Source: Fragilariopsis cylindrus CCMP1102 (Eukaryota > Bacillariophyta > Bacillariophyceae > Bacillariales > Bacillariaceae). From it: DNA of 64,000 bases. The notes beneath the pieces were generated by a model. It did no database searches. It was not told the DNA's origin and worked only from the letters and a program-made list of their open reading frames with translations. The translations under genes were made by a program, and so were the position numbers. The stretch covers positions 186,001 through 250,000 of the forward strand of contig FMBT01000340.1 in NCBI GenBank assembly GCA_900095095.1, in the 5' to 3' direction. Numbering within the stretch: position 1 is the stretch's first letter; each line of letters starts with the position of its first letter. This document shows, piece after piece, positions 20,960-59,852 of this stretch.

Positions 20960-22519
20960 AAACTTTTTGACTTCTGAATCCGAATCATTTTTCTTTTGAC
21001 ATTTAGCTTACGGTACTGTATTATGAAGATACTAGATATCGATGATTGAATTTTTATTTTTCTATTTTTCCAGTAGTTAGATACCGTGATAGTAAGTACC
21101 ACACACGTTTGTATCCGATCCATTTTGGTTGAGTACAGTACAGTACAGTGCAGTTTTTCGCTACAGTATTACAGACCGCTCAAGGTACACTTTTTAAAAG
21201 AGATTTGTTAGTTACAGTAATGTGAACGATTGATTGAATTCTAATGACACATGACGACTAAGCAAGAAGGAAAGAAAGAAAATGACTTACTGTAGCTAGA
21301 ACTCAATGTAAAAGTAGTCTTCAATATCAAGAGCTTTTATTTTACTACCACCACCGCGCGACAGGTTTTACATTAAAATTTGACGACGACGACGACGACG
21401 ACGATCGATCGATCCCTCCTCCAGATACGATACGCTGCAAGGGGTCATCGATGTGCGACGAAAAAAATTATGTGTCATGTCATGATTGTTTGTATACAGT
21501 ACAGTACAATACAGTACAGTCGTTGGTTAGTTAAGAGTGAACAAATAACATAATAATAATTATTATTATTTGAAATTAGAAAATAATGAATTTCCATTTG
21601 GAATTTGAATTTGAATCGAATCGACGGAAACTTATTTTGTGGTGTTTGCTGTACGTATGGTATGTGTGTTGTTTGTTGCGATGTTGCGATGTTGCGACGA
21701 TGGGATGTTTAACACAAACAAGCAAGTTCTTGTCGAAAAGATCTACTGCCTGTAGTACGTTTGCTTCCAACGCAAAAACCAAAAGAAGCAGAGGATTCTT
21801 ACAGTGTAGTAGAGAAAAGAGGTGTACAGCACACTCGACGTTGTCAACAACAGTCGTCACATGCGTGTGGGGGTGTGTCGTCAATAGTCGGTTTGTCACG
21901 TGGCTGGTGTACATGATAAGTACAGTACTACTTAGTGCATGATAAATACAGTAGGGGTGCTGCGAAGAGAATTTATTTGTCTCTTTGAAAAATCGAAAAG
22001 CATACACTTTACAGTACGGTATGGCCGATCTTGCTTTGCGAAATGTTGGGCTGTGATGCATGTTTAAAAAGGTTGTCAAGCAAGAAACAGTACAGTAGAA
22101 TACTACTGTGGTAGATCCAGTTTCCAACGCGATCTATGATACTTGTGGTACAGTAGTTGCGCGATTAAAAAAATCGCTTCCGCAAAACTAAAAGTCATGC
22201 ATGCTAAGCTGGGTGTCAAAGCGAAAAGTGGTGCTGACACGCAACACACGTGTGTGCTTGGTGTCTGTCACTTATGTTGTGTAATGATGCATGTCAACAT
22301 GTACGTGTGATGGCCTGTATGCCAACAAAGTTACATGTGTACGATACGATAGAGGGTGCGCCGTGCTGTGAAGAATTTGTCCTTTGAAAAATTGAAGCAA
22401 AAGACTAATTCATTCTATTCTCCTATTTCTACAATACGTTTAAAAAAATTGTATATATTAATATCATAATATGGTACAGTGGTCAAATCAAGGGCTCGAA
22501 TGAATTATGTATATAATAA
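20960..22519. other. Non-coding flank with dispersed modules shared with 33.5-34 kb
   Basis: Contains a (GAC)7 run at 21383-21403 and several ACAGTACAGT strings. From about 22010 to 22480 the sequence is a direct copy, with small indels, of 33540-33990 (for example TTGGGCTGTGATG, GTAGATCCAGTTTCCAACGC and CTCCTATTTCTACA). ORFs here (21576-22127) recur as a broken frame at 33487-33843 and are not conserved as protein. Confidence 0.55.
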
Positions 22520-22870
22520 ATAGTAGGATAATATAATATATAATTCAAGTTTTATTTTTTATTTTGTTTTTCATTTTTACGTCACATATTATTATATGGA
22601 TGGATCGGTCAGGATTATTCCCAATCATCGTATCTTACTTACCAAAACTTATAGAATCAATTATATATGCACTTCTCTTGTTTGTGTGCTTCAACTTCTT
22701 AATATTATGTATTCACACTTCTCTTGTTTGTGTGCTTTGACTCTTGCGGATACTTCTCTTGTTTGTACATTCAACTTTGTATATATATCTTAACACTTCT
22801 CTTGTTCGTGCTTTGACTTCAACGTATATTAAAATTTATTATTTCTTTTCTTCTCTTTTTAAATGTGTGA
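22520..22870 (-). repeat. Inverted-repeat arm: 3' flank shared with the ice-binding gene
   Basis: This block is the reverse complement of 31325-31690 with high identity across about 330 bp, including GATCGGTCAGGATTATTCCC. Each copy lies just downstream of a coding region (the minus-strand exon ending at 22951 here, the plus-strand ice-binding gene ending at 31229 there). Inside, the string ACTTCTCTTGTTTGTGTGCTT recurs four or five times at 45-60 bp intervals. Confidence 0.9.
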
Positions 22871-22950
22871 TGTGTGTGTGTGTGTGTGTGTGTCTGCGTG
22901 TTTATTTCTTCTTTTAATCTTCAACTGAACAACAATGGCTTCTACGGTAC

Positions 22951-23603
22951 CTATGGTAATTTTCCTCTGAAGCCAATCGTTACAATATCACTGTGACCGG
23001 ATTGGAAGTCAAGACCATCCTTCAGGGTTGTTCGTCCGTGATTAATGGTTTCAATTGAAATCTTTGTGATAGTACCCCCTGATTGATACTTTTTGAACGT
23101 GATTTGAATATCAAATTCTTTAGAAGCATTCGAAAAACCGCTGACAGCAAATCCGTCAGTACAGCAATGATTCCAATGAAAGTTGCCTACCACGCTCTGA
23201 CCATTGCTGCTGATGCTGACTTCACTACCATCATCTTTGATGAAGCCATCGTTGGTGAATTGTGTATTAGCCAATAGCGTGGTGGCAGTGACTTGTAAAT
23301 TTTCATTAATGGCTGCGATAGCGGCCGGTCTATCAAGTATAAGAAACAGAAATAGACCACTATTAGTCTCAAGGAAGTTTAGGGTTACTTCATCTTCGCC
23401 CAAATTAAGAATTCCGTTGTAGCTTGCATCATATCCATTACTATAGGCATAGAGAGCTGACGAAGTGTAATCGCTACAGTCGAAGATGTTAGCATCAGTG
23501 AGCAACGGCGTTTCAATGGAATCATTGACCTCGTAGATAGATGTGACAATGTTCGACGGATTGCAATTAAATTTTGGAGAGTTAGGGTGCTTAATTGATG
23601 AAG
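22951..23603 (-). CDS. Orphan 3' exon of a secreted protein with a bacterial-like Cys-Cys-Thr-Asp-Gly module
   Basis: The minus-strand frame is open from about 23603 to the stop at 22951 but has no ATG near its start (the apparent Met near 23505 is a TTG). It is probably a terminal exon; AG acceptors such as AATTAAG near 23590 exist, and the 5' exon was not found with confidence. The product is non-repetitive, begins SPKFNCNPSNIVTS, and contains FHWNHCCTDGFAVSGF, a string like one I recall from extracellular bacterial proteins. It may be the end of a gene whose middle was displaced by the Pro-Ser gene upstream, or a remnant. It occupies the position that DUF3494 has in the inverted partner arm. 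Confidence 0.45.
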
Positions 23604-23738
23604 AAAGTGATCAAGGTGCGCGTTTACGATTCTTAAAAAAGAAAAGAGTATACATTTATATTTAACTTATTCTTTACATAAGAACTAGATGTGTTTATGG
23701 ATTCTTTTACAACGTATCGTGTATGATTTAACATAGAT

Positions 23739-26368
23739 CTACTGAGGAACAGTGAATTGTTCAATAATAGATGTACCAAATTCACCATCATTAGAAAACA
23801 TTTCTACTCCATCTACCATACCACTAAAAGAACCTAATCCATAGCCACAACACATACCATCACCATAAGAATCAGAAACTAGAAGGATATATGTTGAACC
23901 AGGTGTTAAACAGAATTTACTCTCATATCCTGGTGTACGATAATCATATGTAATCGTATATTCTAAATCATTTGTATACGTAGAAGTTGGTACGGAAGCA
24001 ATTGGAATACTTGAGGAAGATTCTTTTAATGACCAAGATGTTTCACGACCGTATAAATCTGTATTAATAAGCAGTGTAAATTGTCCTTTACTACCACAAG
24101 AGCCACTCGGATCCAAACTAGGAGTAGAGCTGGGTGCATCACTTGGTGTAAGACTTGGAATGGAACTTGGACCAGCACTTGGTGCAGAACTAGGCACAAA
24201 ACTAGGCACATCACTCGGAATTGAACTTGGTGCTGAACTTGGTGCGCCACTCGGATCCAAACTAGGAGAAGAGCTGGGTGCACCACTTGGTGTAGGACTT
24301 GGAATAGTACTTGGACCAGCACTTGGTGCAGAACTTGGCACAAAACTAGGCACATCACTTGGGATTGAACTTGGTGCGCCACTTGGATCCAAACTAGGAG
24401 AAGAGCTGGGTGCACCACTTGGTGTAGGACTTGGAATAGTACTTGGACCAGCACTTGGTGCAGAACTAGGCACAAAACTAGGCACATCACTCGGAATTGA
24501 ACTTGGTGCTGAACTTGGTGCGCCACTCGGATCCAAACTAGGAGAAGATCTGGGTGCACCACTTGGTGTAGGACTTGGTACATCACTTGGACTTGCTGAC
24601 GGTGAGGCACTTGGACCTCCACTTGGAGATGCGCTTGGACCAGAACTTGGAGCTGAACTTGGACTTCCACTTGGTCCACCACTAGGTGAGGTACTTGGAC
24701 TTCCACTTGGTGCACCACTTGGTGACGCACTTGGACTTCCACTTGGTCCACTACTTGGTGACGCACTTGGACTAGAACTAGGAGAGGAACTTGGTGCAGA
24801 ACTAGGAGAAGAACTTGGTGACTCACTAGGATTAGCACTAGGAGAGGCACTTGGAGCATGACTTAGTGTTGGTGTATCACTAGGAGCCAAACTAGGGAAA
24901 AATGATCCACTGGGGGCTTCACTAGGTGATCCACTCGGCGCTGAGCTTGGTGATGATGAAGGCTTGCTGCTTGGTGACTCAGAAGGACCGCTAGATGGCG
25001 AACCACTAGGGGACTCACTTGGACCTCCACTTGGACTTGCTGAAGGCAAGGCACTTGGACCTCCACTTGGGCTTGCTGATGGTGAGGCACTAGGGCCCCC
25101 ACTTGGACTTGCTGATGGGGCAGCACTTGGACCACCACTTGGACTTGCTGACGGTGAGGCACTTGGACCTCCACTTGGAGATGCACTTGGACTAGAACTT
25201 GGACTAGAACTTGGGCTTCCACTTGGTCCACCACTAGGTGAGGCACTTGGACTTCCACTTGGTGCACCACTTGGTGATACACTTGGCTCCAACCTTTTCA
25301 TTGTATAGGTAAGAATAGAAAAATAGGAGGGAGAAAACAATTAGTATATATTATATAGATTGAGACACAAGACAAAAAAGATGGTGCACCACATTGCTGC
25401 AACATTTCTTACCCTTCTGGGACACATACTATTGAAGTTGTTGTTACTGTTCCAAGTGCTTCTACGCACTTTGTCATGTGTTTTGTATCTGATTGACCTG
25501 TTGATGATAAGGTTGCTGTTGCAGTTGCAGTTGCACAAGCTGTTGAGGAATATGGTGCGGTTACTGTTGCGGTCGCTAATGCGCACGCTGCAATGGTCCC
25601 TGTTGCTGTTGCTGTTGCTGCTGCTTCCCCTGCTACGGTCGTTGATGTTGCTGTTGCTGTAGCTGTTGCAATTGCTGTTGGTGCTGTAACTGTTACTGTT
25701 GCGCCGGCTGCTGCGTCCATCGATTTTTCTGCTGTTGATATTGCAGTTCCTTCAACATTGCCTGTAACATTAGTTGATGTTATGGTCACTGTTGCTGCTG
25801 CTACTGTAGCCGTTGATGAAGATCCGGTTGCTAAAGACCCTCCCGCGGTAGCTGATGCGGCCGATGTTTCAGTGTGAGTTACAGTTGCTGCTGCTGCCGC
25901 TTTATCGGGCGCTATTGCAGTTGCAGTTGCTGATTCAGTTGCTGTGGCAGTTGCGGTTGCTGTTTCGGTTGCTGTAGCATTTGCTTTCGCTTTTACGGTA
26001 GCTGTTGCCGTAGCTCTTGTCTTAGCTGCTAGTGGTCCCGTTGCTGTAGAGCACGCTGATTCGATCCCTGTTGTAGTTGCTTCTTCAAGCGCATTTGCAC
26101 ATGCTACCGGCTGGGTCTCAGTTACTACTGCGTGAATTGCTATTCCAGTGCAAGCTGCTTCGCATGTCTCTGCTGCAAGATCTACTAATGGGTGAAGATT
26201 ACGTCCATCCAATTCCTGGTGGTAATGAAGATCAAGATAATCTTCTACTTCTTCTTCAGAATTTAATTCCTCGTTAATGAGTGCCATACTGTTATTTTTG
26301 CCCGATAACCTAGCGGTAGTGACGGCGGGCATAAGCAACAAGATGACGCAAATAAATGAAAGCTTCAT
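23739..26368 (-). CDS. Secreted mucin-like/Pro-Ser-rich protein with C-terminal Cys domain (two exons)
   Basis: Exon 1 is 26368-25413: ATG at 26368, a signal peptide over the first ~19 residues, then a long Ala/Thr-rich region (ATATAT-type repeats) that would be a good O-glycosylation substrate. An intron 25412-25294 (119 nt) has a strong donor (GAAGG|GTAAGA), a TACTAAT-like branch site, a long pyrimidine tract and acceptor AAAAG; phases match (2/2). Exon 2, 25293-23739, encodes some 390 residues of SPS/APS repeats including a ~45-residue higher-order unit (SDVPSFVPSS...SLDPSGAPSS) present about three times, then a Cys-containing domain of ~115 residues with SDSYGDGMCCGYGLGSFSG, a motif also seen in bacterial secreted proteases. 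Total 836 residues. Likely an extracellular or frustule-associated adhesin-like protein. The plus-strand ORF over the repeats is a shadow. Confidence 0.75.
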
Positions 26369-26549
26369 TATGAACCGATGATGATTTGTGTGCTAAATGA
26401 AGCAAAAGAAAAAAGAAATAAGTGGAAAATTGTATAAATATTAATGTGAGTTAAACATACTGTCATTGTCATTAGCACTGCTACAATAAATTGTATATGC
26501 CATCGTGTCATCATCGACGTTACCTATAGGAATACAAATCAATCGAATT

Positions 26550-26940
26550 CAAATGGTATGTAATCGTGATACATATAAATATCTTATTCAATTAGAATTG
26601 AACTTACTTTGTTATCTGGTAGATGTTTTTTATGTTTTGATAATTGAGTTTTGTGAGAGTTTAAAATGAAGATGTGAAAAACAATGAATTGATGATTTTT
26701 TGTCTTTCATCTCATTTTCAAATGTTTTTCATCAACCATCATCGTAGACAAAGTACCAGATCCTACGTGCGTGAGATCATAACTGGTTCCAAGCAGCGTA
26801 TTGTAGCAAAAGACTTGGATCCACTTCAACGTCTGTATTGAACGCATGTACTTGATTCTCCACTATTCCAATGGCGTGTATGTTAACACGTGTACTTGAT
26901 TCTCCACTATGTATCGTCTATCAGTGTGATAGTGTGGCAG
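26550..26940 (-). promoter_or_regulatory. Duplicated 5' flank, copy 1 (inverted)
   Basis: Upstream of the gene starting at 26368. On the minus strand it matches 29290-29640 and 35030-35320: a TACGCTGCTTG.AACCAGTT block, GGATCTGGTACTTTGTC, GAAAAACATTTGAAAATGAG, CATCTTCATTTTAAACTCTC and a TAACAAAG|TAAGTT string whose GTAAG (at 26607) looks like the donor of a 5'-UTR intron. Conservation of this block beside three different coding regions suggests a shared promoter and leader. Confidence 0.7.
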
Positions 26941-27120
26941 TATAAGTAAAATGCAGTATGAAAGTAGTTGCGCTGTTATGAGCGAAGAGTGAAGGAAACA
27001 AGTTGAATAATACGTGTAATTCGACTTGTTTTAGAAACAAGTTGAATAATACGTGAGCTCAAGTTACCGAACTTGACAACCCGGTGTGCAGAAAACGCTC
27101 GAGCCCTGGTTCAAGGTTGT

Positions 27121-27310
27121 TTTTCTAAATAAGCGCAATGTAATATAGGCTGGAGCGCGATGAAATGTGACTATATCTTCTATATTACGATGGTACAAAA
27201 GTCCCGGTTCAATGGTTTTCTAAATAAGCGCAATGTAATATAGGCTGGAGCGCGATGAAATGTGACTAAATCTTCTATTTTACGATGGTACAAAAGTCCC
27301 GGTTCAATGG
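27121..27310. repeat. 95-bp tandem duplication (two copies)
   Basis: 27121-27215 and 27216-27310 are nearly identical (starting TTTTCTAAATAAGCGCAATG, ending CCCGGTTCAATGG). They lie in the spacer of the inverted locus; no coding is seen. Confidence 0.95.
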
Positions 27311-28999
27311 TTTTATCCCCATTCCTATCACCATAATTGAATTCGACTGTTCCTATTCACATCAAGGAATAGAAGAAATAAGTTAATGATAGTAATTTGA
27401 CTTTTCACGCATGAACACTAATTAAATCCGATTCTTGTATCACGAAGACAACTATAAAAGAATGCATCACCAAGTTCTATTTTTGTAAGTGGATTCATAT
27501 TCACATTAAGGAATATAAGAAAGAACATTAATGATAGTAATTTGATTTTTCATCCATTCCCATTCGTATCACTTCAAGCGACGATGCACCATGTACTGTT
27601 CTCTTGTTCTTCGGGGATTGGATATTTTTTTTGAATGACATTATTAAATAATGAATTGCTCGTGGTCAAATCAAGGGCACTAATGAATTATTGCTTTAAA
27701 TATCACATCATAATATAGTACAAATCAAGGGCTCGAATGAATTATTGCCTTAAATAATATATTAAATAATGTTCCACATTACATCATAATATTATTATGT
27801 ACGTTTTAGTCTTACTGTCGCGCGCCCAGTACCACAATTGTATTCTCCTATTTCTACAGTACGTTTAAAAAAATGCACAGCAGGTGATGAATATTGCCTG
27901 TGCGCCACTATTCGCGTCTACAAATCCATGGAATACTGTCATTCAAATACATTACCGCAACTACTTTCATACCTCATTATTTTAATTATAAAGCTAGTGA
28001 AAACACGATTACTAAAAATATCTATTCTACTTAAAGTACCGATAGTTGCGCCATTTAACTAGAAGTCATGCATCATGCTACTCTGGGTGTCAAGGAGAAA
28101 AGAGGTGATGAAACGCAACACACGTGTGCTTGGTGTCTGTCGCTCACGTGTAATGCATGTCAGCAGGTCACGTGTGATGGCCTGCATGTCAACAAAATAA
28201 TCTACTGTACTTGAAGTACCGGTAACGTTAGTTGCGCGATAAACGGTAAAAAAATTGTATTTGTTGTGTACGTTTTAGTCTTACTGTCGTAAATAATAGC
28301 GTTCGCGTAGAATAATGGAATTTAATTAAGGGTGATACGAATGGGAATGGATGGAAAAATCAAATTACTATCATTAGTTTTATTTCTTATATTCCTTAAT
28401 GTAAATAGGAACAATCGAATTTAATTATGGTACACGAATGGGAATGGATGAAAAATCAAATTACTATTATTAATTTTATTTCTTATATTTCTTGATGTGA
28501 ATACTTCAAGTAGGAACAATCGAATTTGATTATAGTACTACGGATGGGGATGTATGAAAAATCAAATTACTATCATTAATTTTCTTCCTTCTGTTCCTTG
28601 ATGTGAATATGATTTCACTTAGAAGTAGAACTTGGTTTTCTAGGTTCTTTGGTCGCGGTGATGCATTCTTTTATCGTTGTCTTCGTGATACAAAACATTC
28701 TCTCATTTCTTTTTGTATCGGTTCGATTTTTTCTGTATCGGTTCTAGAAACGTATGCCCTCACTCAAAGACCTCGTTATGACCACAACTCATAGATAGAA
28801 ATATATACATATATAGGCTGACAAACGCTTCTGGAGAGAACGTTCGACGTCTTTGTAGAGGAATAGTGGAGAATCAAGTGTATACACGTGCTAACATAGA
28901 CGTCATTGGAATAGAGGAGAATCAAGTACACGTGTGAATCAATGTAAGTACTTGTTGATACAAAGGACAGATCACCATATGTAAAGTCTCACCGTCTCA
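27311..28999. repeat. Central spacer of the inverted locus, with internally inverted repeat modules
   Basis: 27340-27560 is an inverted counterpart of 28317-28690 (ATCAAATTACTATCATTA, TATTCCTTAATGTG, and GATGCATTCTTTTAT with CTTCGTGATAC). On the right side a ~100-bp unit is repeated about three times in tandem (28317-28605). 27838-28290 carries modules also found at 22190-22480 and 33740-34320. No gene is supported; the short frames at 27838-28062 and 28603-28794 are repeat-derived. Confidence 0.7.
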
Positions 29000-29640
29000 C
29001 TGTCACATTATCACAATGATAGACGATACATAGTGGAGAATAGGAATCACGACTCGACCCATTGCATTCATTGATGAAACGATAGGAATCACGACTCATT
29101 GCATGCATTGATGCATACATGTATTGAAATATACACGTGCTAACATACACGACATTGGAATAGTGGAGGATCAAGTGCACGTGTTAATCAATGATAACAT
29201 ATACGCCAATGATCGTCGAGTATTATTTCATACAGAAAGGAGGCTAGTAGCTACCTCGTACCATCTACTAGAAAAACCCGGAAGTTGTAGCAAACGTTTC
29301 TGGAAAGATCGTTCGATGTCTTTGTTGTGGAATAGTGGAGAATCAAGTACTAGTACACGCGTTCAACACCGACGTTGCAGTGGATCTAAAACTTTTGCTC
29401 GAATACGCTGCTTGAAACCAGTTGCTAAGATTCATAAATTCATGATCTCACGTAGGATCTGGTACTTTGTCTACGATGATGGTTGATGAAAAACATTTGA
29501 AAATGAGATGAAATATGAAAAATCATCAATTCATTGTTTTTCACATCTTCATTTTAAACTCTCACAAAATTCAATTATCAAAACTAATAACATCTAATCT
29601 ACCAAATAACAAAGTAAGTTCTATTCTTATTGAAATTGTT
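29000..29640 (+). promoter_or_regulatory. Duplicated 5' flank, copy 2
   Basis: Upstream of the ice-binding gene. 29290-29640 is the plus-oriented counterpart of 26570-26900 (inverted) and 35030-35320 (direct). It includes the same GGATCTGGTACTTTGTC block and the candidate leader-intron donor AACAAA|GTAAGTT at 29614, 220 bp before the ATG. AATAGTGGAGAATCAAG-type strings recur at 28864, 28910, 29157 and 29332. A 120-codon frame here is not conserved in the other copies. Confidence 0.65.
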
Positions 29641-29833
29641 ATGCTATGTTACATGATGAGGATGAATGTGAAATCACAATTCTGTACCATTTTACGAAAA
29701 AGTTTATAATTTATTGTGCAGTTCTAATTGCTAACCTTTCTTTGCATTAAAAACTGAATTGAATCAATTTAATCAAACCGAACCAAATCAAATCAAACGA
29801 TACAAATCAGTCAGCTTCCTTTCTTCTACTACA

Positions 29834-31229
29834 ATGAACTACTCCTCCATCGCCATCATGTTTCTCATCGGAGGACTCTCGCAAGTCCATTCCGCACCCC
29901 TTCTTCTAACAGAGGAACCGGCGTGCGTTAACGCGAAGCCCATCTGTACAGCCGACGGTGCCAACTTTCCAGCTGCAACCGATTCAGCTGTATTGTCAAG
30001 CGAATCTACGAACAACTATGGCTGTTTGGGAAGTGAACCTAACCCTGCATGGTTTTATCTTAGGATTGATCAATCCGGCAATATCAACATGTCACTTTTT
30101 GCTCCCAGCGATATTGATTTCATTGTGAGTGGAGCAAAAAGAACAAGGAGGTTACATATGCTTTTCAGTGTATTCTGACCTATCATTGCTGACCATTTCC
30201 TTTTTTATCTGTGTCTTTTTATTGTCTCATTATTCCCTCTACTTTCGACCTGTTCATCAGATCTGGGGTCCCTTTAATACTCTCACAGACGCTTTAGGAA
30301 GTTGCAACGGAGGCTTAGACGCAGCTCTCACAGTAGACTGTAGCTACAGTGGTACAAACTCTGAAACCCCAACTATTACGAGTGCCCAAACCGGTGAGAT
30401 CTACATCCTTCTTGTTACCAACTATTCCAACAGTAATCAAGATATATCCTTGACAAAAACTAGTGGTTCTGGCACAACAAGTTGTAAGGATGTACCACCA
30501 CCTACACCACTACCTACACCACCACCTACACCACTACCTACACCACTACCTACACCACTACCATCTAATGCACCCAGTTCTTCGCCCACTTTTGAGTCGG
30601 TCTCGCACGAGGTGTGTGGAGACTTTGCTGTCCATGCTCGAACCACTGTCACTTTCGCTGGTGTTACAAGCACAATCCAAGATGGAGATGTGGGCGTCTA
30701 TCCCGGCACTTCCATTACTGGGTCTTACCAGTTTGTGAACGGGGGGAACACTGTGTTGAATTCCCCTGCTTTCGCCGATCACGTTGTAAATTCTCACGCT
30801 TCTGCAATGGCAGGCAGCTATGGCACTAGCGAAACGGCCATGGCGATTGAGATCGGAGGCATAACTTTCCTCCCAGGAATCTACCGTTCAGGCAGTGCCA
30901 TCAACTTTGCTTATGGCACTGTGGTCACTCTAGATGGTAACAACGAAGCTAACCCCGAGTTTATCTTCATTGCTGGCAGCACTCTGGTTACTGCTGCGGA
31001 CACCTATTTTGACCTGCAGAACGGTGCCAAAGCGGAGAATGTTGTCTGGGTTCTCGGTACTGCCGCCACCCTTGGGGCCCGCAGTCATGTTGCTGGCTCC
31101 ATTATGGCTGGAACCGCCATCACCTTTGGTACCAATTCGAAATTGTATGGCTGTGCACTCGCTCAATCTGCCGTGACCTTTGAGAGCGGAGGATCTGTTG
31201 CGATCGATCATTACGAGATGATGCCCTAA
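29834..31229 (+). CDS. Secreted ice-binding protein: Bacteroidetes-like N-module, Pro-Thr linker, DUF3494 domain (two exons)
   Basis: ATG at 29834; exon 1 ends at 30124, an intron runs 30125-30260 (ATT|GTGAGT to CATCAG, phase 0), and exon 2 runs to 31229; 419 residues. A signal peptide covers residues 1-20 (ends QVHSA). Residues about 28-170 form a module with YGCLGSEPNPAWFYLRI, a Ser/Asp stretch DIDFI, WGPF after the splice and VTNYSN, a pattern I know from surface proteins of Bacteroidetes. Residues ~175-210 are a PTPLPTPPP linker. Residues ~214-419 are a DUF3494 ice-binding domain (VHARTTVTFAGVTSTI, GIYRSGSAINFAYGTVV, LGTAATLGARSHVAGSI, GCALAQSAVTFES). DUF3494 proteins are beta-helices that bind ice or act as adhesins; in polar diatoms they are exported and thought to derive from microbes by transfer. 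The intron shows it is now a eukaryotic gene. Confidence 0.9.
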
Positions 31230-31324
31230 TCGTCCAAAGGAAGTAGTATAACTGTTGACGTTTAAAAAAAAGATAGAAGATTTGCACGTGCTAATACATT
31301 TGTGCCATGTAATAGACGACTTGG

Positions 31325-31690
31325 CCATGACTGTTACCACACATTTAAAAAGAGAAGAAAGAACAACAATAAATATTAACATACGTTGAAGTCGAAGCAC
31401 GAACAAGAGAAGTGTTAAGATATATACAAAAAGTAGGAGTACAAACAAGAGAAGTATCCGCAAGAGTCGAAGCACACAAACAAGAGAAGTGTGAATACAT
31501 ATCATTAAGAAGTCAAAGCACACAAACAAGAGAAGTGTATATATAATTAATTCTATAAGTTTTGGTAAGTAAGATACAATGATTGGGAATAATCCTGACC
31601 GATCCGTCCACATAATACTATGGGACGTAAAAATAAAAACAAAATAAAAAATAAAACTTGAATTATATTATTATGTATAATCCTATTCTA
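31325..31690 (+). repeat. Inverted-repeat arm: 3' flank of the ice-binding gene
   Basis: Reverse-complement partner of 22520-22870. It begins about 100 bp after the stop codon and contains several copies of AAGCACACAAACAAGAGAAGT. The first bases after the stop (31230-31290, GAAGTAGTATAACTGTTGACG followed by an A-run) recur after the decayed third copy at 37990-38050. Confidence 0.9.
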
Positions 31691-33480
31691 TTATCCTATG
31701 ATATTATTTGTGATTTGTTTCTACACTATATATTTGTATACATATTATACTACATCTATTATTTTTATTGTTATTGGGCTACCTACCTACGCACAACTAT
31801 TATCTTTCAACATCAATATTGATGATACATTTTATGGTAGAAAAACCATCCATCATTTTCTTTTCATGTTAATGATGAAATGGAATTTGGAATTTGGAAG
31901 TTGTTGTATTAGTTGGTTTGGTGGACTTCTTGGTGTCGTCGTTGAAATCGGTGTTCTCTGTTGAAGTTGCCATCATCATCATCGTCATCATCATCATCAT
32001 CATCATCATAGCAGATTGATGATTATAACAAGACACAACGATTCCTACTGTACGGAAACGGAAACGGAAACGAAACTAAACTTCACATCTTTTTCTTCAT
32101 CGAAATCAATAATGCAACTAGTGGTACTAGTACTGGTAGTACTGGTAGTACGTTTCGTTCTTTTTCTTGTTGTCCTCATTCATGGAGAGTAGTAGTTCAT
32201 TCTTGGTAAGTTAGCGTTATTCGTTCTGGGATTATGATTATAATTTTGATTGTGCTGCTGATGATGATTGTGCTGATTTCCACCTGGATGGTGTGTGTTT
32301 TTTTTTTCTTGTTCTTGTTCTTGTTGTTTGTCTTGATGATGGTGATGATGATGATGACGATGACGATGACGATTTTTATTATTATCTATCGCACGTATCA
32401 TGATCTATAAGAAGACATGATTGGAAGGTACAGAATTTACAATAACACGGGATTAAAGATGACAACGACAATGACGACAAGATGACGACGATGCGGTCGT
32501 ATTAGTACTTGATTCTTTCTCCTTCTCCTCCTTCTTCTGCTTCTTCTTCTGCTTCTCCTTCTTCTTCTTCTTTGCGTTAGCGCACGCACATTTTATTGAT
32601 GGGGACCCAACTAACTGCTACCACGATTATCTTAACCAATTATTTGATGTCGAACAACCTTGAAGAGCATTATTTGGTTCAAGTGTTCTCGCCGGCGACG
32701 AATTATGTGTGACCATCGCTATATTGCTGCAACAACTATACGAGAAGCTCGTATACAGTTGTAACTGCCTTCATCTATTGTAGTACACCACACACCAAAC
32801 CACACATCACAAATAATCTCTCCTGGATTCGATTCGATTCATTCGGATGATGTTGATTATATCAAATCAAAGGAAATTTTTTGGTCGATTACTAATCTGT
32901 ACTAGTACTAGTAGTTGAATTTGGATTTGCATGCAAGGCAACCTCCTCTTATCTTTAATAGAGCTAATATCTTTTTAATCACAGGAGGAGGAGGAGGCTT
33001 AGTAGGTGCTCGTCGAATCGAATCATCTTGTTGTTGTTGTTGTTTCAGTCTTGAAAGAAGCAACAGCTATTCTTTTTTTCTTAGTCAAAAAATGGAGTTA
33101 GAAGGTCCTTCTTCGTGGTGTATCTGGTGCTTTCAATAGCGAAGAGAGTGCGCCACATTCATTTTTGATTAGAGCAATACAAGATCCTATACAGTCAATT
33201 TGATGAATTTTTCGACAGATCTGCTTTGCTTCACCAACAGTCCTAGTTTAGTAATAAATGATATTTTCGCTTCAAAAAGAGGACTTTGACCCAGAAAAGG
33301 AGAACTATAGTAGTATTTGAGGGATGCTTGTTTGAACAAGTATGGTTTTGTTTATATTCATTCAATTAGAAGTTGTCTAAAATTGAGCCACCATGGGCAA
33401 ATCCATTAGAGGACGTAATTAAAATATAATAATAATTACAATGTAAAAAGAAAATGAATCACTCTGCGCGGTATTACTGT
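31691..33480. other. Intergenic region with trinucleotide tracts
   Basis: ATC/TCA repeats (31970-32010), a GAT/GAC repeat around 32336-32370 and a CTT/CTC-rich tract at 32518-32573. A minus-strand 73-codon frame from an ATG at 32401 encodes a His/Asn/Gln-rich low-complexity peptide generated by the repeat; I give it little credit. No other gene was seen. Confidence 0.45.
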
Positions 33481-34324
33481 AGCACGTTAAATTATTATCG
33501 CGCTTATCCCCTCGGACAATGTGCGCTGCCCGGAGGAAGTACAGTACGGTATGTTGTCGATCTTTGCTTTGCGATGTTGGGCTGTGATGTTTAAAAAGGT
33601 TGTCAAGGAAGAATAGTAATGAATACTACTAGTACTGAAGTCACGTAGATCCAGTTTCCAACGCGATCTATTACACTTGAAGTAAGTTACCGGTACAGTA
33701 GTTGCGCGATAAAAAAATCGTTTCCGCAAAACTAGAAAGTCATGCATGCATGCTAATGCTACGCTGGGTGTCAAGGAGAAAAGAGGTGTGCTGTAATGAT
33801 GCATGTCAACAAAAGTCACGTGTGATGGCATGTATGGCAACAAGAAGTTACAGGTGTACAGTACGATAAAAGGGAAGAAGAGAATCAGTCTTTTGAATTC
33901 TAGTATTCTCCTATTTCTACAGTACGTTAAAAAAATTGTATACAGTATGATAATATTATGATGTAATATTTAAGGCAATATGTCATTACAGCCCTTGATT
34001 TGAACACGAACAATGCCACTACTGTACTATATATTATGATGTAATATGTAAGGCAATATTTCATTACAGCCCTTGATTTGACCACGAACAATGGTACTAC
34101 TTTACCATATTAGAATTTGTCTTTTGAAAAATTGAAGCAAAAGAGAATAGTATGTTAATAACTCGCCACTACCAAGAAAATATAGAGGGCGAAGCATGAG
34201 GTAGTGAATGTTGCGTGCACACACACAATTTTATTCTCCTATTTCTACAGTGCATTTAAAAAAATTGTATATATTATGTACGTTTTAGTCTTTCTGTCGT
34301 AAATAATAGCGTTCGCGTAGTAAT
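33481..34324. repeat. Module copies shared with 22.0-22.5 kb and 27.8-28.3 kb, with a ~75-bp tandem pair
   Basis: 33540-33990 repeats 22010-22480 in direct orientation. Within it, 33957-34110 holds two tandem copies of a unit with TATGATGTAATAT, AAGGCAATAT and CCCTTGATTTGA. 34230-34320 repeats the CTCCTATTTCTACAGT...GTACGTTTTAGTCTT...AATAGCGTTCGCGTAG block also found at 28240-28312. No gene is supported. Confidence 0.75.
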
Positions 34325-34530
34325 CGCGTTCGAGTAGTCCTGTAGTCGCTTCTACAAATCCATGAAATAATGTCAATCAAATACCCAATTCCCGAAGAAC
34401 AAGAGCGCGTTCGAGTAGTCCTGTAGTCGCTTCTACAAATCCATAAAATAATGTCAATCAAATACCCAATTCCCGAAGAACAAGAGAACAGTCAATGGTG
34501 CATCTTCGCTCCGCACGCGTTCGAGTAGTC
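34325..34530. repeat. 81-bp tandem repeat (two copies plus a partial)
   Basis: Units start CGCGTTCGAGTAGTCCT at 34325 and 34406, with a partial third start near 34517. Each contains AATACCCAATTCCCGAAGAA. An inverted relative lies at 27590-27650. Confidence 0.85.
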
Positions 34531-34999
34531 CTACGACGGTTTTTGAGTTTTAGCATTTAAACGAAATATATTGTTCTATTTTTTCTACTACTGTGAAGAA
34601 TCGAATTTGATAGAAGTGATACGGATGAAAAATCAAATTACTATCATTAACGTTCTTTCTTATATTCCTTGATGTGAAAATGAATCCACTTAAGAATAGA
34701 ATTTGGTCCTCTAGGTACTTTGGGTTCTTTTACGGGTCGTGGTGGTGCATTCTTTTATCGTTGTCTTCGTAATCAAATTTAATTAGTATTCATGCGAACG
34801 GTGATGCATGAAAAGTCAAATTACTGTCGTTAATTTATTTCTTCTATTCCTTGAATGGGGATCTTGATTGCCGCCCGAGCTATTTTGAAGCATTTAATAC
34901 TGCTCAAGCTAACTACTTTGTTTTCGACTCATTGGCCTGAGCTATTAATGAATATGTTGATTGTCGCCCGAGCTATTTTGAAGTATTTAATACTGCTCA

Positions 35000-35330
35000 T
35001 ATAGAAAGACTAGCGCTTCTGGAAAGAACATTCGACGTCTTTGTAGAGGAATAGTGGACGCGTTCGACACAGACGATGAAGTGGATCCAAATATTTTGCT
35101 TCAATACGCTGCTTGGAACCAGTTATGATCTCACGTAGGATCTGGTACTTTGTCTACGATGATTTTTGATGAAAAACATTTGAAAATGAGATGAAATACG
35201 AAAAATCATCAATTCATTGTTTTTCACATCTTCATTTTAAACTCTCACAATATTCAATTACCAAAACTAATAACATCTAATCTACCAAATAACAGAGTAA
35301 GTTCTATTCTTATTATATAAGATATTGAAA
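35000..35330 (+). promoter_or_regulatory. Duplicated 5' flank, copy 3
   Basis: Direct-orientation relative of 29290-29640: GTCTTTGTAGAGGAATAGTGG, GGATCTGGTACTTTGTC, GAAAAACATTTGAAAATGAG, CTCTCACAATATTCAATTA and a leader-donor-like ACAGA|GTAAGTT at 35297. Part of it is repeated again at 35395-35590. It leads into the family X gene and the decayed ice-binding copy. Confidence 0.7.
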
Positions 35331-35674
35331 TTGTTATGTTATGTTACATGATGGTGTGGTATGCCATGTGAAATCACAATCCTGTACCATTTTACTGCTT
35401 GGAACCAGTTATGATCTCACGTAGGATCTGGTACTTTGTCTACGATGATGGTTGGTGAAAAACATTTGAAAATGATAGCGCTTCTGGAAAGAACATTCGA
35501 CGTCTTTGTAGAGGAATAGTCGACGCGTTTGACACAGACGTTGAAGTGGATCCAAGTCTTTGCTTCAACTCGCTGCTTGGAACCAATTGCTCACCTTTTA
35601 TCATCATCCTCCTTTTCTCGTCTCTGATAGAACCAACAACTATTACTACTAAAGCTGCTGCTACTACTATCATT

Positions 35675-36532
35675 ATGGAGAAGATAAGTCGCAATAATAA
35701 TAAGAAGAATAGTAATACTTTATTTACTACTTTTCATTCACCTACACCAACCACCGCTAGCGCTATGACTAATAAACGATTATCAGCATCTTCTACTGAT
35801 TCTCCTACCAGTATTACTGATGATATTAGTCCTAATAAGAATTCACCACCAGCGTTATTATCATTACAGGAGTCGTCGTCAGAGTTGTCACAGGAGTCGC
35901 AGGAGTCACAGCAGCAGGAAAAAGAACAATACCGAGTACGATTTTTTAGTAAGGTAACCGTTAAAAAAACACTTTCACTTAAATCAATGTCTAATAAAGA
36001 AAAATGTAATTATTGGTTACAAGAAGATGAATTTGTACGAATTAAACAAAGAAATGATACTATGATACAACAAATTAATAATGATATTGATGATGATTAT
36101 AGTGATCATCAAGGGAATAGTCAATCATCCTTATTATCTTTTACAAAAAGTAGTGTCCATTATGGTCATCAACATTATGATAATGAGGATGAGGATGAGG
36201 ATTGTAAACGTGGATTAGAATATGGTTTGAAAATAGAAGCAATTCGGAAACGATCATCACGATATTTAGCATTAGAAGAAGTATTGATCAAACAAGAAGA
36301 ACAGTACTTAAGTGGTAGTGGTAGTTTTAATGATAGTCAGAGTGACTATTTTATTTATGATGATGAGGCGATAGCTGATGCCTATTATACGATCTCGTAT
36401 GAATGTCAACATCGTGCACATCGTATTGCAATACAAGATAGAAAAGAAATTGAATACTATATTCATGACGGGACAAAACGCACAGGGCGCTGTGGGTGGA
36501 GATCCGGCCATGGGGAACATGAGTCCGTCTGA
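35675..36532 (+). CDS. Family X hypothetical protein (member B), 3' end fused into an ice-binding pseudogene
   Basis: The frame is open from 35546 (a GTG), but the first in-frame ATG is 35675, giving 285 residues. A Ser/Thr/Asn-rich N-terminus is followed by the family core: YRVRFFSKVTVKKTLSL, SMSNKEKCNYWLQEDE, CKRGLEYGLKIEAI, RYLALEEVLIKQEEQY, YDDEAIADAYYTI and AIQDRKEIEYYI. Other members end a few residues after this last motif; here the frame runs on for about 20 residues into sequence that belongs, in another frame, to the neighbouring decayed gene, so the natural C-terminus is probably lost or replaced. It lies between the duplicated 5' flank and the DUF3494 pseudogene, where the secretory leader exon of that gene would be expected. 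Function unknown. Confidence 0.7.
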   Translation: MEKISRNNNKKNSNTLFTTFHSPTPTTASAMTNKRLSASSTDSPTSITDDISPNKNSPPALLSLQESSSELSQESQESQQQEKEQYRVRFFSKVTVKKTLSLKSMSNKEKCNYWLQEDEFVRIKQRNDTMIQQINNDIDDDYSDHQGNSQSSLLSFTKSSVHYGHQHYDNEDEDEDCKRGLEYGLKIEAIRKRSSRYLALEEVLIKQEEQYLSGSGSFNDSQSDYFIYDDEAIADAYYTISYECQHRAHRIAIQDRKEIEYYIHDGTKRTGRCGWRSGHGEHESV

Positions 36533-37990
36533 GCAATACCTCAAAAAATATACATTCGCATCTGCTGGTGACCAATTTGATACGCCGACATGGGGATCTT
36601 GGAATTTGACGGACAACAAGTGCCAAGTGCTACTTTCACGCAGATTGGCTCCAGTGGATTTTCTTCGGCAGTGATATCCCTTTCACAAGGGACTCATACT
36701 ACAGAGTCGCTGATCAATGGGCATGGCATTACTGTTATTGGATTCGGATATGCTGACTCCTACATTTATCCCGGAGGCTCTGAATTCGAGACCATCAATC
36801 CTGCTGGAGATCCATTCCCACCCTTGTGCTCAATCCTTACCAGCGGAACCGAGTTCAGCACCAAGTTTAATCCCAAGTGATGTGCCTAGTTTTGTGCCAA
36901 GTTCTGCACCAAGTGCTGGTCCAAGCTCTATTCCAAGTCTTACACCAAATGGTGCACCCAGCTCTTCTCCTAGTTTGGATCCAAGTGGCGCACCAAGTTC
37001 AGCACCAAGTTCAGTCCCGAGTGATGTGCCTAGTTTTGTGCCAAGTTCTACACCAAGTGCTGGTCCAAGTTCCACTCCAAGTCTTACACCAAGTGGTGCA
37101 CCCAGCTCTTCTCCTAGTTTGGATCCAAGTGGCGCACCAAGTTCAGCACCAAGTTCAGTCCCGAGTGATGTGCCTAGTTTTGTGCCAAGTTCTGCACCAA
37201 GTGCTGGTCCAAGTTCAATTCCAAGCCTTCACCAAGTTCTGCACCAAGCTCTGCACCAAGTTCTGTTCCAAGCACTTCGCCTAGTACTAGTCCCAGCACC
37301 TGGCCCAGTACATCTCCAAGTAATTCGCCCAGTACTAGTCCAAGTACTTCCCCAAGTACCAGCCCATCTTCTGCGCCCACTATCACTTTTGATGGTGTTA
37401 CAAGCACGGTCCACAATGGGGATGTGAGCGTCTATCCCAGCACTTCTATTACTGGGGTCGTTGAGTTCAATAATGCTGGGAATGCTACTGGGGCTTTTCA
37501 GTTTGAGATTGGGGAAGTTGTGGTGGAATCTCAAGATTTCGCTGATCACGTTGTATATGCCCACGCTGTTGCAATGGAATACCATGATGACGAAGAGACC
37601 ATGGAGATTGAGATTGGAGGCATGACTTTCACCCCAGGAATCTACCGTTCAGACAGTGCTATCAACTTCGCTCATGGTACTGTGGTCACTCTCGATGGTA
37701 ACAATGAAGCTAATCCCGAGTTTTTCTTCATTGCTGGCAGCACTCTGGTTACTGCTGCGGACACTTATTTTGACCTGAAGAACGGTGCCAAAGCGGAGAA
37801 CGTCATCTGGGTTCTCGGTACTGCTGCCACCCTTGGGGCCCGCAGTCATGTCGCTGGCTCCATTATGGCTGGAACCGCCATCACCTTCGGTACCAATTCT
37901 AATTGTATGGCTGCGCACTTGCTCAATCTGCCGTGACCTTTGAGAGCGGAGGATCTGTTGCGATCAATCATTACGAAGATGATGCCCTAA
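36484..37990 (+). pseudogene. Decayed ice-binding (DUF3494) paralogue with IgGFc-binding-like module and Pro-Ser linker
   Basis: Pieces in different frames follow the order of a secreted protein. First, a module with VGGDPAMGNMSPSEQYL, then TFTQIGSSGFSSAVISL and VIGFGYADSYIYPGG, which resembles the IgGFc-binding domain of bacterial and animal surface proteins. Next, a Pro-Ser linker (36850-37380) made of the same SDVPSFVPSSAPSAGPSS unit as in the gene at 23739-26368. Last, a DUF3494 domain (37380-37990). No signal peptide is present. The frame changes at least three times: inside the IgGFc-like part (near 36590-36640), at the linker end (near 37230), and near 37900, where one base is missing relative to the intact copy (NSKLYGCALAQS there, NSNC here). 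The second half of DUF3494 is almost identical to the intact gene; the first half is much more divergent. Confidence 0.8.
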
Positions 37991-38637
37991 TTACCGTCTA
38001 GAAGAAGTAGTGCAACTGTTGACGTTTAAAAAAAAGATAAAAGATTTACAAGTACTTAACCCACACGACACACAAATACACTCACACACGCACACAAAAC
38101 AAATCCCGGTATAAGACACCCTTTTATAATAGCAGTATAAGTTTATAAATAAATATATTATTAATATTATTTGACTTATTTTTCTATAATATTTGTACAG
38201 AGTATATCAGAAAAAGAATATTCTTATTTCTTCACATCCTTTTTTTCTTCACATTCCACGATTTGTTGTAGTCGAATCGTATCGAATCAAGTCCGTCATG
38301 GAAAAAGAAGTCTATATAACGTACACTCTCTTTATGATAAGAGACGAAGTGTAAGACGACGAATGATATATATATATTATCATACCGTAGTAACTATACC
38401 ATGTATTTCTTCCAAACAAAACAAAACAAAACAAAATAAAATGTCTTTCACAAACATAACATACCGATTCCTTTACGTTCACGATCATATTCACGTTCAT
38501 GTTCACGTTCCCATTCACCGACATTCGCCACTCTCCACAAATCTTCTTCTTTTTCTTGCATTTATTTTTAATTCTGTTACTGTAGTTTCATTTTCTGTTT
38601 CAGTTTATTCTTTATTATCATCTTTATTCATTATTCT

Positions 38638-40336
38638 TTATTCTTCATTATCATTATTATCATCATCTTTATATAAACAATCCATTAAACTTTTTGTTAA
38701 TTCACTTTTATTTAAATTTTTACCAATGAACACAAATTTATTCAAACGTTCTTCATTGTCTTGCCATGGCACGGAAGCAGGACCAAAATTAATTTGTTCA
38801 TGCACACCTTGAAAAACAAATTTAATATTTCCTTGTCCATGAAATGATAATAAACCTTTCGATCGATATATATCGGCAGCACGTTCTCGTAACAAGTCCA
38901 TCATAAACATATTAAACCACTGGGCATGTAATTGTCCCTTGAAAGTCACACCGACACTTTGTACTACTTCTAAATTATGATGTGATTCCTCACCTTCTTG
39001 AGTATCAAAAAAATCTGGATCGACTGTTAATATAGATTCCATATTAAATGAATTTAATCCTAATATTTGATCCAATGGTACTTTCGATTTGGTACATTCT
39101 AATATTGCAGCTGTTTTATTAATATTTTTTAATCTTGTTTCCAGTACTCGTTTTTCCTCTGGCGTCACTAAATCAATTTTATTTAATAAAATTTTATCCG
39201 CAAAAGCAACTTGTTGATACGCTTCATTGACATCCGTAGGATTGGGTTTGATTTCATTTAAATGAATTGGTAAATGTTTCGCATCGGCTAAACATACAAT
39301 CGAATCAATGAAATAATTTTCCGACATTTTCGAATTTGTTTGAATCGTATACACAATCGGTGCAGGATCGGCGAGTCCAGTCGTTTCTAATAATATGGCA
39401 TCAAAGTCCTGTCGACGTTTCACTAATTGTCCTAATGTACGTACTAAATCACCACGGACCGAACAACACACACATCCATTATCCATAGTAATTAAATCTT
39501 CCGGTGCATCCATCGATTCCGCAACTGTACATGGTACATATATAAAGGAAGGAAGAAAAGGAAAGGAATGGGTTTTAGTTAGTAAAGAAGAAGAAGACAC
39601 GAAATAATCTTCGTTTGGGTATGTCATGTTATGGAATTCAATTCGATTCGATTTTTGTTGTTCGCGATATTACATACACAGACAAAAATAACCGGACCAG
39701 GGAAGGGTGTGGATATCGGTGTGGAACGGATGGGGGGAGGGGGGGGGATGACATGACATGACACAAGGCAAGCAACAAAAAGACAGACAGGACGGACGAC
39801 AACGACGACGATATAGTATATGGAGAATAAATAGCGGCAGCGGCGACGACGGAACGGAACGACAAGAGCCGAGCGATGTGTAGATAGACCTTCTCGTCTC
39901 TTCGTTTCGTCTCTTTTTGCTTGTTCGTCTCTCTCTCTTCTCTTCTCTCTCAAATCAAGTCAAATCAAATTCATTCATTCATCTGGGTTATAGAATCGGG
40001 ATCGGAGAAGGGAGGGAGGGGGGTTACGACGACGACAGGACGACACGAATAACGAGACAGGACAACGAACACGGACATAAAAAACTGTATAAATAACTTA
40101 CCTAATCCATCATCAATCGATACTTCACCAAATTCATTTTCCAATACACAAATTTTCCAATCATTTTGTTCTTTTAAAATATAATTGACAAAGGTGGTTT
40201 TACCAGCACCTAAAAATCCAGTAATGACAGTAATGGGTGTTAATTTATTTGTACTTGGATCATCAACTTTAGTAGTAGTTGTCGCCTTTACAGCATCGTC
40301 GGCTGTTGTTGTTGTTGTTTTTGTTTGTTCCGACAT
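38638..40336 (-). CDS. CobW/ZNG1-family G3E GTPase (metal chaperone), two exons
   Basis: The apparent start at 40369 is a TTG; the first ATG is at 40336. Exon 1 is 40336-40102, ending G|GTAAGT; a 577-nt intron (40101-39525) ends CATGTACAG; exon 2 is 39524-38638. Phase 1 joins cleanly to give 373 residues with [15 protein letters not shown] at the junction. Motifs in order: Walker [17 protein letters not shown], the metal-binding CVCC of G3E proteins ([12 protein letters not shown]), [15 protein letters not shown], and a CobW C-terminal domain ([35 protein letters not shown]). Eukaryotic relatives deliver zinc to methionine aminopeptidase. No targeting peptide is evident, so it is probably cytosolic. 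Frames inside the long intron and on the plus strand over the 3' end are shadows. Confidence 0.92.
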
Positions 40337-41313
40337 CTTGTTCTTGTTTTTGTTTTGATTTGATTGCAATGTTAATGTATAACGTCGAAGAGGATTAGGT
40401 TAGGATAGAGGTAAGGTTCGAGTTTGGTTTCGTTTGCTTTGCTTTACTTTGCTTTTCTAAGAGTTAAAAAAAAGAGGCTAATTGTTGTAATTGAAATGAG
40501 AATATGTGCGTAATGCAAGTTGCGTAATGCAAAGTTGCGGTCTTTTTGAGATAAAATCTTGCTTGTTGGTGTGTGCGTTGTCGTATGACGAACAAAGAGT
40601 ACAGTATGCCACGATTGATGAGGCTCTATTACGCACGCATACCGCCCGTGTAAAATAAAAGCATACAGTATCTCTCTCTTTCGGTTTCCTTGTGCTTCTT
40701 TTTTTTTTTTCTACGAGGTCTTTTAGGACGAGAAAAATAAATATGGACTCAACGTAACGTGCTGTAGACGAAATACGACGAGGTCTTAATAAAACGAGAG
40801 GCAGCCATAGTCTGCTATTCAACCGTGATAAAAATGAAAATTGATTGGCTGGTAGTACTAGTAGGTGATTCCGCGACGAAGTAGGGGAGCGATGGATGTT
40901 CTTGAATGCAATAATTTTTAATTTTGTATATTAAAATAAAAAAATCAGAACTATCCAGAACAAGCCATGCCACCTGCTGTAGTACAACAACTTTTCTCAT
41001 GAAGGTTATATTATATTATAATAAACACCCGTAGGAAGTCAGCAGCACGATGATGTATCATGTGAAATATCTCTATGCTATTATTCTAGACTAGCAGCTG
41101 GCTGGCTAGAGCTGAGCAAGTCTTGAAAGTGAAGTCAAATCTGATACCCAAACTATACAACAATATAGGTTGTGATTGCAGTACTAATACTACTACATAC
41201 ACTCACCCTACCTAGTTAGTTGGGTAAAACACAGAAACAGGGGCAGAGGTAGACATACTGAGAACAAGCAAGAAACAAAAATGAGATGATGTGATGTGAT
41301 ATGGGATTAGATC

Positions 41314-46019: not shown

Positions 46020-46189
46020 TTTACACATATTGTGAAAGTAGAAGCAAGATAATTGATTTTTTGTGGAAACGCTTTTGATTCTTTTGTTTTGTTTTCTTAG
46101 ATTGTGAGCACAGACGATGAATATGAATATGAATATGAGAGGGATTTTGCAAATGTTATCGCCCACAATTGTACCGTACTTATTTCCTT

Positions 46190-49469: not shown

Positions 49470-49524
49470 GCGATGAACATCAGCGACGAACATCAGCGAC
49501 GAACATCAGCGACGAACATCAGCG
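49470..49524. repeat. 13-bp minisatellite (AACATCAGCGACG)
   Basis: Four to five tandem copies of AACATCAGCGACG, with the outer copies varying at one position (GATG). Confidence 0.9.
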
Positions 49525-50917: not shown

Positions 50918-51056
50918 AAAAGTCCGTAATTTTTCTATTGCCCTTAATTTCGGTTCAATAAAATCATATTCTTCCATAGTTTATTAATTATCTCTTGACA
51001 CGCGATGATTTATAAGTCCGTAATTTTTCCATTGCCCTTAATTTCGGTTCAATAAA
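50918..51056. repeat. Local duplication of a ~50-bp block
   Basis: AAGTCCGTAATTTTTC followed by ATTGCCCTTAATTTCGG and TTCAATAAA occurs at 50920-50970 and again at 51014-51060. A weaker third relative lies near 50745-50780. Confidence 0.8.
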
Positions 51057-57375: not shown

Positions 57376-57426
57376 CACGTAAGATACATTTCCAGCATAC
57401 TCGCATCGATCGATCGATCTACAATC

Positions 57427-59026: not shown

Positions 59027-59060
<34 letters not shown>

Positions 59061-59813: not shown

Positions 59814-59852
<39 letters not shown>

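What the first reader, a model, noticed from the sequence alone, without database searches (positions are those of the whole stretch)
22010..38050. Inverted, repeat-built locus that places different secreted-protein modules between shared flanks
Seen directly: the minus-strand segment 22.52-26.94 kb and the plus-strand segment ~29.0-31.69 kb have matching 3' flanks (22520-22870 against 31325-31690, inverted) and matching 5' flanks (26570-26900 against 29290-29640, inverted), yet the coding DNA between the flanks is different (mucin/Pro-Ser/Cys protein plus orphan exon against DUF3494 protein). A third set of 5' modules (35.0-35.6 kb) leads to a decayed DUF3494 copy. The spacer 27.3-28.7 kb is itself internally inverted, and 22.0-22.5 kb repeats 33.5-34.0 kb. 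Inference: flanks act as homology for exchange of extracellular modules, a cassette-like way of making surface proteins. This is the best candidate for an undescribed system in the window.
Basis: partly seen in the sequence, partly recalled or inferred. Interest (0 to 1): 0.78.

Follow-up and report, generated by a model that had tools for sequence, protein, structure and literature searches.

The report
Shuffled secreted-protein genes around ice-binding domains
In this alga-like genome, genes for secreted-looking proteins keep similar start and end DNA while the domains between them differ, and traces of recombination near a repeated linker suggest that domains, ice-binding ones included, are being swapped between genes.

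Summary
In detail: loci A (minus, 26.94-22.52 kb) and B (plus, 29.0-31.7 kb) share 5' and 3' flanks (84%, 91%) around unrelated coding DNA. It is not a local oddity. Five loci share a secreted-looking N-terminal module (M), an intron and a Pro-Ser linker, yet each ends differently: Cys-containing S (A), Cys-rich H, a short Cys tail, SUEL lectin, DUF285, although M differs by only dS 0.027-0.23. Conversely one DUF3494 ice-binding clade carries N, IgGFc, H or DUF285 in front. Two of five recombination tests are positive: C469 switches parent inside the intron before the linker (122:10, then 1:16; 0 of 5000 shuffles) and C464 about 30 bases into the linker (0 of 5000); C462 shows none. Flank divergence of A and C469 agrees on both sides of the differing part (p=0.56). 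So the flanks look like promoter/leader and 3' ends of duplicated genes whose interiors were replaced. Locus C is broken. Kind: domain shuffling, in an unusually recent form.

The parts
26570..26940 (-). Locus A 5' flank: promoter/leader-like module; ~130-base core at 26643-26780 shared genome-wide
   Evidence: 29 matches in own genome; core 23 matches
25413..26368 (-). Module M: secreted-looking (signal judged by eye) Ala/Thr-rich N-terminal exon, 319 codons with the split one
   Evidence: relatives at C469/C81, C462, C464, C354; spliced frame read
25294..25412 (-). Predicted intron (GT..AG, phase 2) between M and linker; the C469 switch lies in its counterpart
   Evidence: GT..AG kept in 5 of 5 M loci
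24102..25293 (-). Pro-Ser linker of A, with a 144-base minisatellite (3.5 copies, 24102-24592)
   Evidence: PF04886 E 4.9e-30; TRF; 226 matches in genome, 40 candidates scored
23739..24101 (-). Module S: Cys-containing C-terminal domain, stop included
   Evidence: 20 matches in own genome, itself included; no Pfam
22951..23610 (-). Module D: orphan 219-aa open frame; the only match in this genome is itself
   Evidence: no Pfam; structure model unusable
22519..22869 (-). Locus A 3' flank (3'-UTR-like)
   Evidence: 91% to B; 21 matches in genome, 5 of them about 200 bases or longer
22010..22480 (.). Downstream spacer shared with C469/C81 (92%) and, weakly, with 33540-33960
29291..29695 (+). Locus B 5' flank (promoter/leader-like)
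29834..30494 (+). Module N in two predicted exons (29834-30124 and 30261-30494): Bacteroidota-like N-terminal domain
   Evidence: only B's own two exons match in the genome; 41-53% identity to bacterial proteins; exon ends read
30495..30569 (+). Short Pro-Thr linker of B
30570..31229 (+). DUF3494 ice-binding-like domain of B
   Evidence: PF11999 E 1.5e-31, 110.1 bits against cut-off 28.7; PDB 7bwx E 1e-21
31325..31692 (+). Locus B 3' flank
35011..35588 (+). Locus C 5' modules, partly doubled
36459..36833 (+). IgGFc-binding fragment of locus C (frames broken)
   Evidence: PF17517 E 3.7e-6, 26.9 bits against 25.6; 83-93% aa matches at C307 (L054)
36834..37384 (+). Pro-Ser linker of C, frame-broken
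37377..38056 (+). DUF3494 copy of C, frame-broken near its end
   Evidence: PF11999 E 5.6e-29
27315..28693 (.). Spacer between A and B with inverted repeats

Best explanation
These loci belong to a dispersed family of mosaic secreted-looking proteins, probably surface or matrix proteins of an ice-associated diatom (organism inferred). Shown: gene-start DNA and often gene-end DNA are kept while the domains between differ, and two loci carry parent switches in the M/linker intron or at the linker's start. Inferred: duplication (inverted on C420) spreads copies; the Pro-Ser minisatellite linker, matched over 200 times in the genome, lets unequal crossover or gene conversion join one gene's front to another gene's domain in frame; older C-terminal modules may be pushed downstream and survive as orphans (D in A; a DUF3494 tail in C469; a broken linker-DUF3494 copy in C464). 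Inferred function: new combinations of ice-, sugar- and protein-binding domains on a common secreted frame, over evolutionary time.
For: Five M loci, five different C-terminal modules, M dS 0.027-0.232. B and C420:255 share 5' flank (5.2% substitutions) and DUF3494 (6.4%) but carry N against H. H occurs after M (C469), before DUF3494 (C420:255) and before a distant DUF3494 kind (C447); DUF285 occurs after M (C354) and before DUF3494 (C640, C202). Footprints: C469 122:10 then 1:16, and C464 24:11 then 0:16, each 0 of 5000 shuffles. Within 30 bases, homology ends in the linkers of both loci in 10 of 10 M pairs; for DUF3494 pairs in 13 of 15 both, 15 of 15 at least one. A's two linker units differ more from each other (pS 0.143) than from those of E (0.103) or C (0.118). 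A and C469: 5'-side against 3'-side non-coding divergence p=0.56. dN/dS 0.42-0.63 in M and 0.31-0.75 in DUF3494.
Against: That homology ends in a linker is partly expected wherever domains differ. Three of the five breakpoint tests are negative: C462 (A/C354) 4572, C464 (A/C354) 743, C462 (A/C464) 465 of 5000; the C464 switch is measured against C469, itself a recombinant, so the two footprints may not be independent. Linker units are a mixed witness: in C464 and E they are closer within the locus (0.106, 0.037) than to other loci (0.139-0.209, 0.054-0.200) (14 units). Loci were chosen through flank, M and DUF3494 searches, not at random. The intron of A and C469 differs by 9.8%, their leader by 2.7%, spacer 7.7%. 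Orphans: 3 of 5 M loci; none of the tested modules after C462, C354 not read far enough; D has no linker at its start. No RNA, protein or second strain.
Confidence: 0.73

Rival explanations
1. Ordinary gene duplication with illegitimate (non-homologous or transposon-borne) domain capture; linkers and flanks play no active part.
For: Spacer repeats look like small mobile elements (by eye); an open frame at C464 that I took for a copia RNase H from memory abuts its second linker, but Pfam names no family for it; module N is bacterial-like.
Against: Footprints at homologous positions in intron and linker are what homologous exchange leaves; no element ends seen by eye at the A, C469 or C462 junctions printed.
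Confidence: 0.22
2. A programmed switching system: inverted flanks let the cell exchange or invert cassettes in somatic time, as in variant surface antigens.
For: Inverted flanks A/B and inverted spacer; apparently promoterless modules.
Against: Each compared locus has its own leader core; modules are unrelated families, not variants; M dS of 0.03-0.23 is far from somatic; the near-identical contig pairs C469/C81 and C462/C434 carry the same modules.
Confidence: 0.05
3. Alternative terminal exons: A makes M-linker-S or M-D by splicing, and D is not an orphan.
For: D lacks a start, and a T-rich stretch with AG precedes it (sequence, by eye).
Against: No D-like frame elsewhere in the genome; untested without RNA; does not explain the other loci.
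Confidence: 0.15
4. Assembly artefact (collapsed or chimeric copies).
For: Only one copy of the neighbouring 38640-40640 stretch was found, so no second haplotype checks the window.
Against: The same pattern appears on other contigs: C469/C81, C462/C434, C464, C354, C640.
Confidence: 0.04

Closest known systems
DUF3494 (type 1) ice-binding proteins of algae
   Same: The domain passes Pfam's cut-off in B and C. [quoted passage not shown] an algal DUF3494 protein with a root cap domain is in print (PMC10796529; title and start of abstract seen).
   Different: Here one clade stands behind four different N-terminal modules in six loci compared, and B has a predicted intron in front of the domain; PMC3342323 (passages) reports that its algal ice-binding genes lack introns.
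Rhs/polymorphic toxin rearrangement in bacteria
   Same: Constant N-terminal part, variable C-terminal part, orphan C-terminal pieces downstream without a start, recombination at a shared stretch (PMC3967940, abstract and passages).
   Different: Eukaryote with introns; binding-type domains; displacement itself only inferred; immunity genes not searched for.
Exon/domain shuffling of extracellular proteins (recalled)
   Same: Modules joined in frame by a linker and an intron.
   Different: Recent (M dS down to 0.027) and placed beside a minisatellite-coded linker.
Variant surface antigen gene conversion (VSG, MSG; recalled, no call)
   Same: Shared flanks around variable coding DNA.
   Different: No single expression site, modules are not variants of one fold, no evidence of switching.

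Membership tests
DUF3494 ice-binding protein | PF11999 domain above cut-off (B, C) | tested here: met
   B 110.1 bits, C 101.7 bits, cut-off 28.7
DUF3494 ice-binding protein | Ice-binding activity | not testable with these tools
   needs protein
DUF3494 ice-binding protein | Locus A carries the domain | tested here: not met
   no DUF3494 in A's frames
Domain shuffling | Same module in different architectures | tested here: met
   M, H, DUF285 and DUF3494 each in two or more contexts
Domain shuffling | Recombination footprint at a junction | tested here: met
   two of five tests positive: C469 (A/C354), C464 (A/C469); negative: C462 twice, C464 (A/C354)
Rhs-like tip displacement | Orphan C-terminal modules downstream | tested here: inconclusive
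   3 of 5 M loci (A, C469, C464); only the C464 orphan keeps a linker
Rhs-like tip displacement | Toxin/immunity gene pair | tested here: inconclusive
   Pfam hits over cut-off are PT, SUEL lectin, DUF285, Ice_binding, IgGFc, HYR; S, H, D, N unassigned; no search for immunity genes
Antigenic variation system | Single expression site | tested here: not met
   leader core at A, B, C, C420:255, C469, C462, C464
Antigenic variation system | Switching within a clone | not testable with these tools
   needs reads
Invertible DNA switch | Site-specific recombinase nearby | not tested
   no dedicated search made

The most novel reading that the evidence does not exclude
A eukaryotic counterpart of the Rhs scheme: a constant secreted front and a minisatellite linker act as an acceptor into which new C-terminal binding domains, some from bacteria, are repeatedly inserted, displacing the former domain downstream as a silent but reusable orphan, with strains differing in the domain carried.
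Probability: 0.14. Interest if true: 0.85.

Novelty: new variant of a known kind. Interest (0 to 1): 0.6.

Why it matters
How protists build new extracellular proteins from horizontally acquired domains is an open question. Here intermediate steps seem visible: nearly identical gene fronts (dS 0.027) with unrelated ends, parent switches in an intron and at a repeat-coded linker, and a bacterial-like domain (N) already fitted with a predicted intron, a leader and an ice-binding partner. Rate, direction and mechanism could be measured in strains. It also warns that ice-binding gene trees and counts in such algae can mix domains with different histories.

Tried and rejected
Without result: structure of D from single sequence, mean pLDDT 39.8, so not searched further. 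Pfam names no family for S, D, N, H, for the C464 frame that I took for copia RNase H, or for the secreted Cys family of L040. PDB sequence search with S gave one match at E 0.63. A second haplotype sought through 38640-40640: none. Organism name not determined; 'diatom' is inferred from protein style and ice-binding content. PMC13149256 (abstract and passages) reports ice-binding families in two sea-ice diatoms; whether its genome is this one was not tested. PMC7335047 (passages) mentions exon shuffling only with reference to another organism's tandem duplicates.

Rejected: flanks as a transposon (no common ends seen in the alignment, whose middle was cut from the output; core before an ORF on its strand in the 11 loci); flanks as cassette-specific sites; somatic switching (see rivals). 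My first idea that the two flanks of A/C469 differ in age was dropped when substitution-only counts gave p=0.56.

Papers: the listings (titles, starts of abstracts) of searches showed none about module exchange in algal ice-binding or M-type genes; that is all these open-access searches can say.
Full report
OBSERVATION. The repeats exist at the stated coordinates. A and B are inverted to each other, share both ends and have no DNA match between. C shares the 5' modules, the linker of A and the DUF3494 domain of B, but is broken.

SETTING. The window is C420:186001-250000 of an unnamed assembly of 67.9 Mb in 818 contigs; PF11999 has 53 matches in it and rings in 0 of 14 control genomes. I call it a diatom by inference only. 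Beyond the window C420 holds two more family members: C420:255 (leader, H, linker, DUF3494) and a 986-codon frame from 258.2 kb ('E') whose start matches B's at 84% over 137 bases and which holds HYR domains (PF02494, E 6.9e-17), two H modules and the linker.

WHAT THE FLANKS ARE. The 3' flank has 21 matches; those of about 200 bases or more are A, B, C640 (a DUF3494 gene) and C469/C81. Of 14 loci with short matches read, 5 have a same-strand ORF of 100 aa or more ending within 150 bases before the match (L014, L016, L017, L022, L025); 9 do not. The 5' flank has 29 matches; its core, searched from a non-family copy, 23. I read 11 non-family loci by eye: 11 of 11 have an ORF on the core's strand just downstream; six are one secreted-looking Cys family, two a second family, three others. 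A splice-like AAGTAAGT lies in the leader of 8 of 9 M or DUF3494 loci tested (A, B, C469, C462, C464, C420:255, C447, L054; not C) and beside the core in none of the 11 non-family loci. So the flank looks like a promoter/leader: dispersed, but bound to ORF starts.

WHAT LIES BETWEEN. M is full length or nearly so at A, C469, C81, C462, C464 and C354; C434 has a fragmented copy near-identical to C462 (99%), and C81 matches C469 at 95.8-99.8% in pieces. Counting each contig pair once there are five loci. Their ends: A, S; C469, H; C462, a short Cys tail; C464, SUEL lectin (PF02140, E 4.2e-19); C354, DUF285 (PF03382, E 3.7e-140). In front of the DUF3494 clade: B, N; C, IgGFc fragment; C420:255, H; C640, DUF285 (E 6.2e-82); C202, DUF285 (E 1.5e-46); C464, no intact module. 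H also precedes a distant DUF3494 kind at C447. S has 20 matches in the genome, its own included; D and N match only themselves. Six bacterial loci match N at 41-53%: five labelled Flavobacteriales or Bacteroidetes, one Acetofilamentum. In L078 it is the N-terminal part of a frame of at least 1177 aa. This supports a horizontal origin for N.

HOW RECENT. M dS: A-C469 0.027, A-C464 0.078, A-C462 0.083, C462-C464 0.114, pairs with C354 0.21-0.23; dN/dS 0.42-0.63 (ten pairs). DUF3494 dS 0.095-0.308, dN/dS 0.31-0.75 (ten pairs among B, C, C420:255, C640, C464; open pieces only for C and C464; C202 left out). So genes nearly identical in M have unrelated ends.

HOW IT HAPPENED. The M/linker intron keeps GT..AG in 5 of 5 loci. 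At sites where A and C354 differ, C469 follows A 122:10 through M and the first half of the intron, then C354 16:1; no shuffle of 5000 reached this. At sites where A and C469 differ, C464 is mixed (24:11) up to about 30 bases into the linker, then C469-like (16:0); 0 of 5000. Since C469 is itself recombinant, direction and independence are open. Other tests were not significant: C462 A/C354 4572, C464 A/C354 743, C462 A/C464 465 of 5000 (five tests, two positive). The shuffles allow for choosing the best breakpoint but not for relatedness. The linker as hub is an inference: it has 226 matches (40 candidates scored); A's units are closer to those of E and C than to each other, but C464's and E's are closest within their locus. 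On the right side, similarity of A and C462 resumes 17 bases after D's stop in A and 12 after the stop in C462; that of A and C469 resumes 16 bases after the H stop in C469, which is 234 bases after D's stop in A. Substitutions on both sides of the differing part agree for A-C469 (p=0.56) and are close for B-C420:255 (5.2% and 6.4%, untested). This fits a duplication followed by replacement of the interior.

ORPHANS. Downstream of the first C-terminal module lie D (A), a 44-residue DUF3494 tail (C469) and a frame-broken linker-DUF3494 (C464). None of the tested modules follows in the 2.1 kb read after C462; C354 was read only 0.55 kb further. The likeness to bacterial Rhs orphans (PMC3967940) is one of anatomy.

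VERDICT. A real pattern, present on several contigs, of recent domain exchange among secreted-looking genes, ice-binding ones included, with footprints at the intron/linker.

Noticed in passing
C635, C254, C367, C500, C108:500.8, C307:69.9 kb (L040, L043, L044, L045, L049, L055): A secreted-looking Cys family (no Pfam) shares the promoter/leader core of these loci; other ORFs (L041/L048, L042, L046, L057) have it too. A common leader before unrelated ORFs may mark a regulon.
   Followed up: partly
window 29834-30494: Bacteroidota-like domain N, single copy in this genome, interrupted by a predicted GT..AG intron inside the domain.
   Followed up: partly
window 35459-36532: A 357-aa frame between the 5' modules and the IgGFc fragment of locus C, apparently placed behind the leader.
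   Followed up: no
C674:243466-245442: Three DUF3494 matches within one 760-aa open frame.
   Followed up: no
C425 and C631: DUF3494 in open frames of 1152-1982 aa; the same contigs carry arrays of the linker unit.
   Followed up: no
L073:4993-5619: Open frame that resembles a copia RNase H from memory, abutting a Pro-Ser linker; Pfam names no family.
   Followed up: partly
window 57404-61538: Tandem duplication (77-89%) of a gene with a GFGAMAAHIPDDG stretch.
   Followed up: no
window 45402-52126: Three diverged repeats (64-83%), two direct and one inverted.
   Followed up: no
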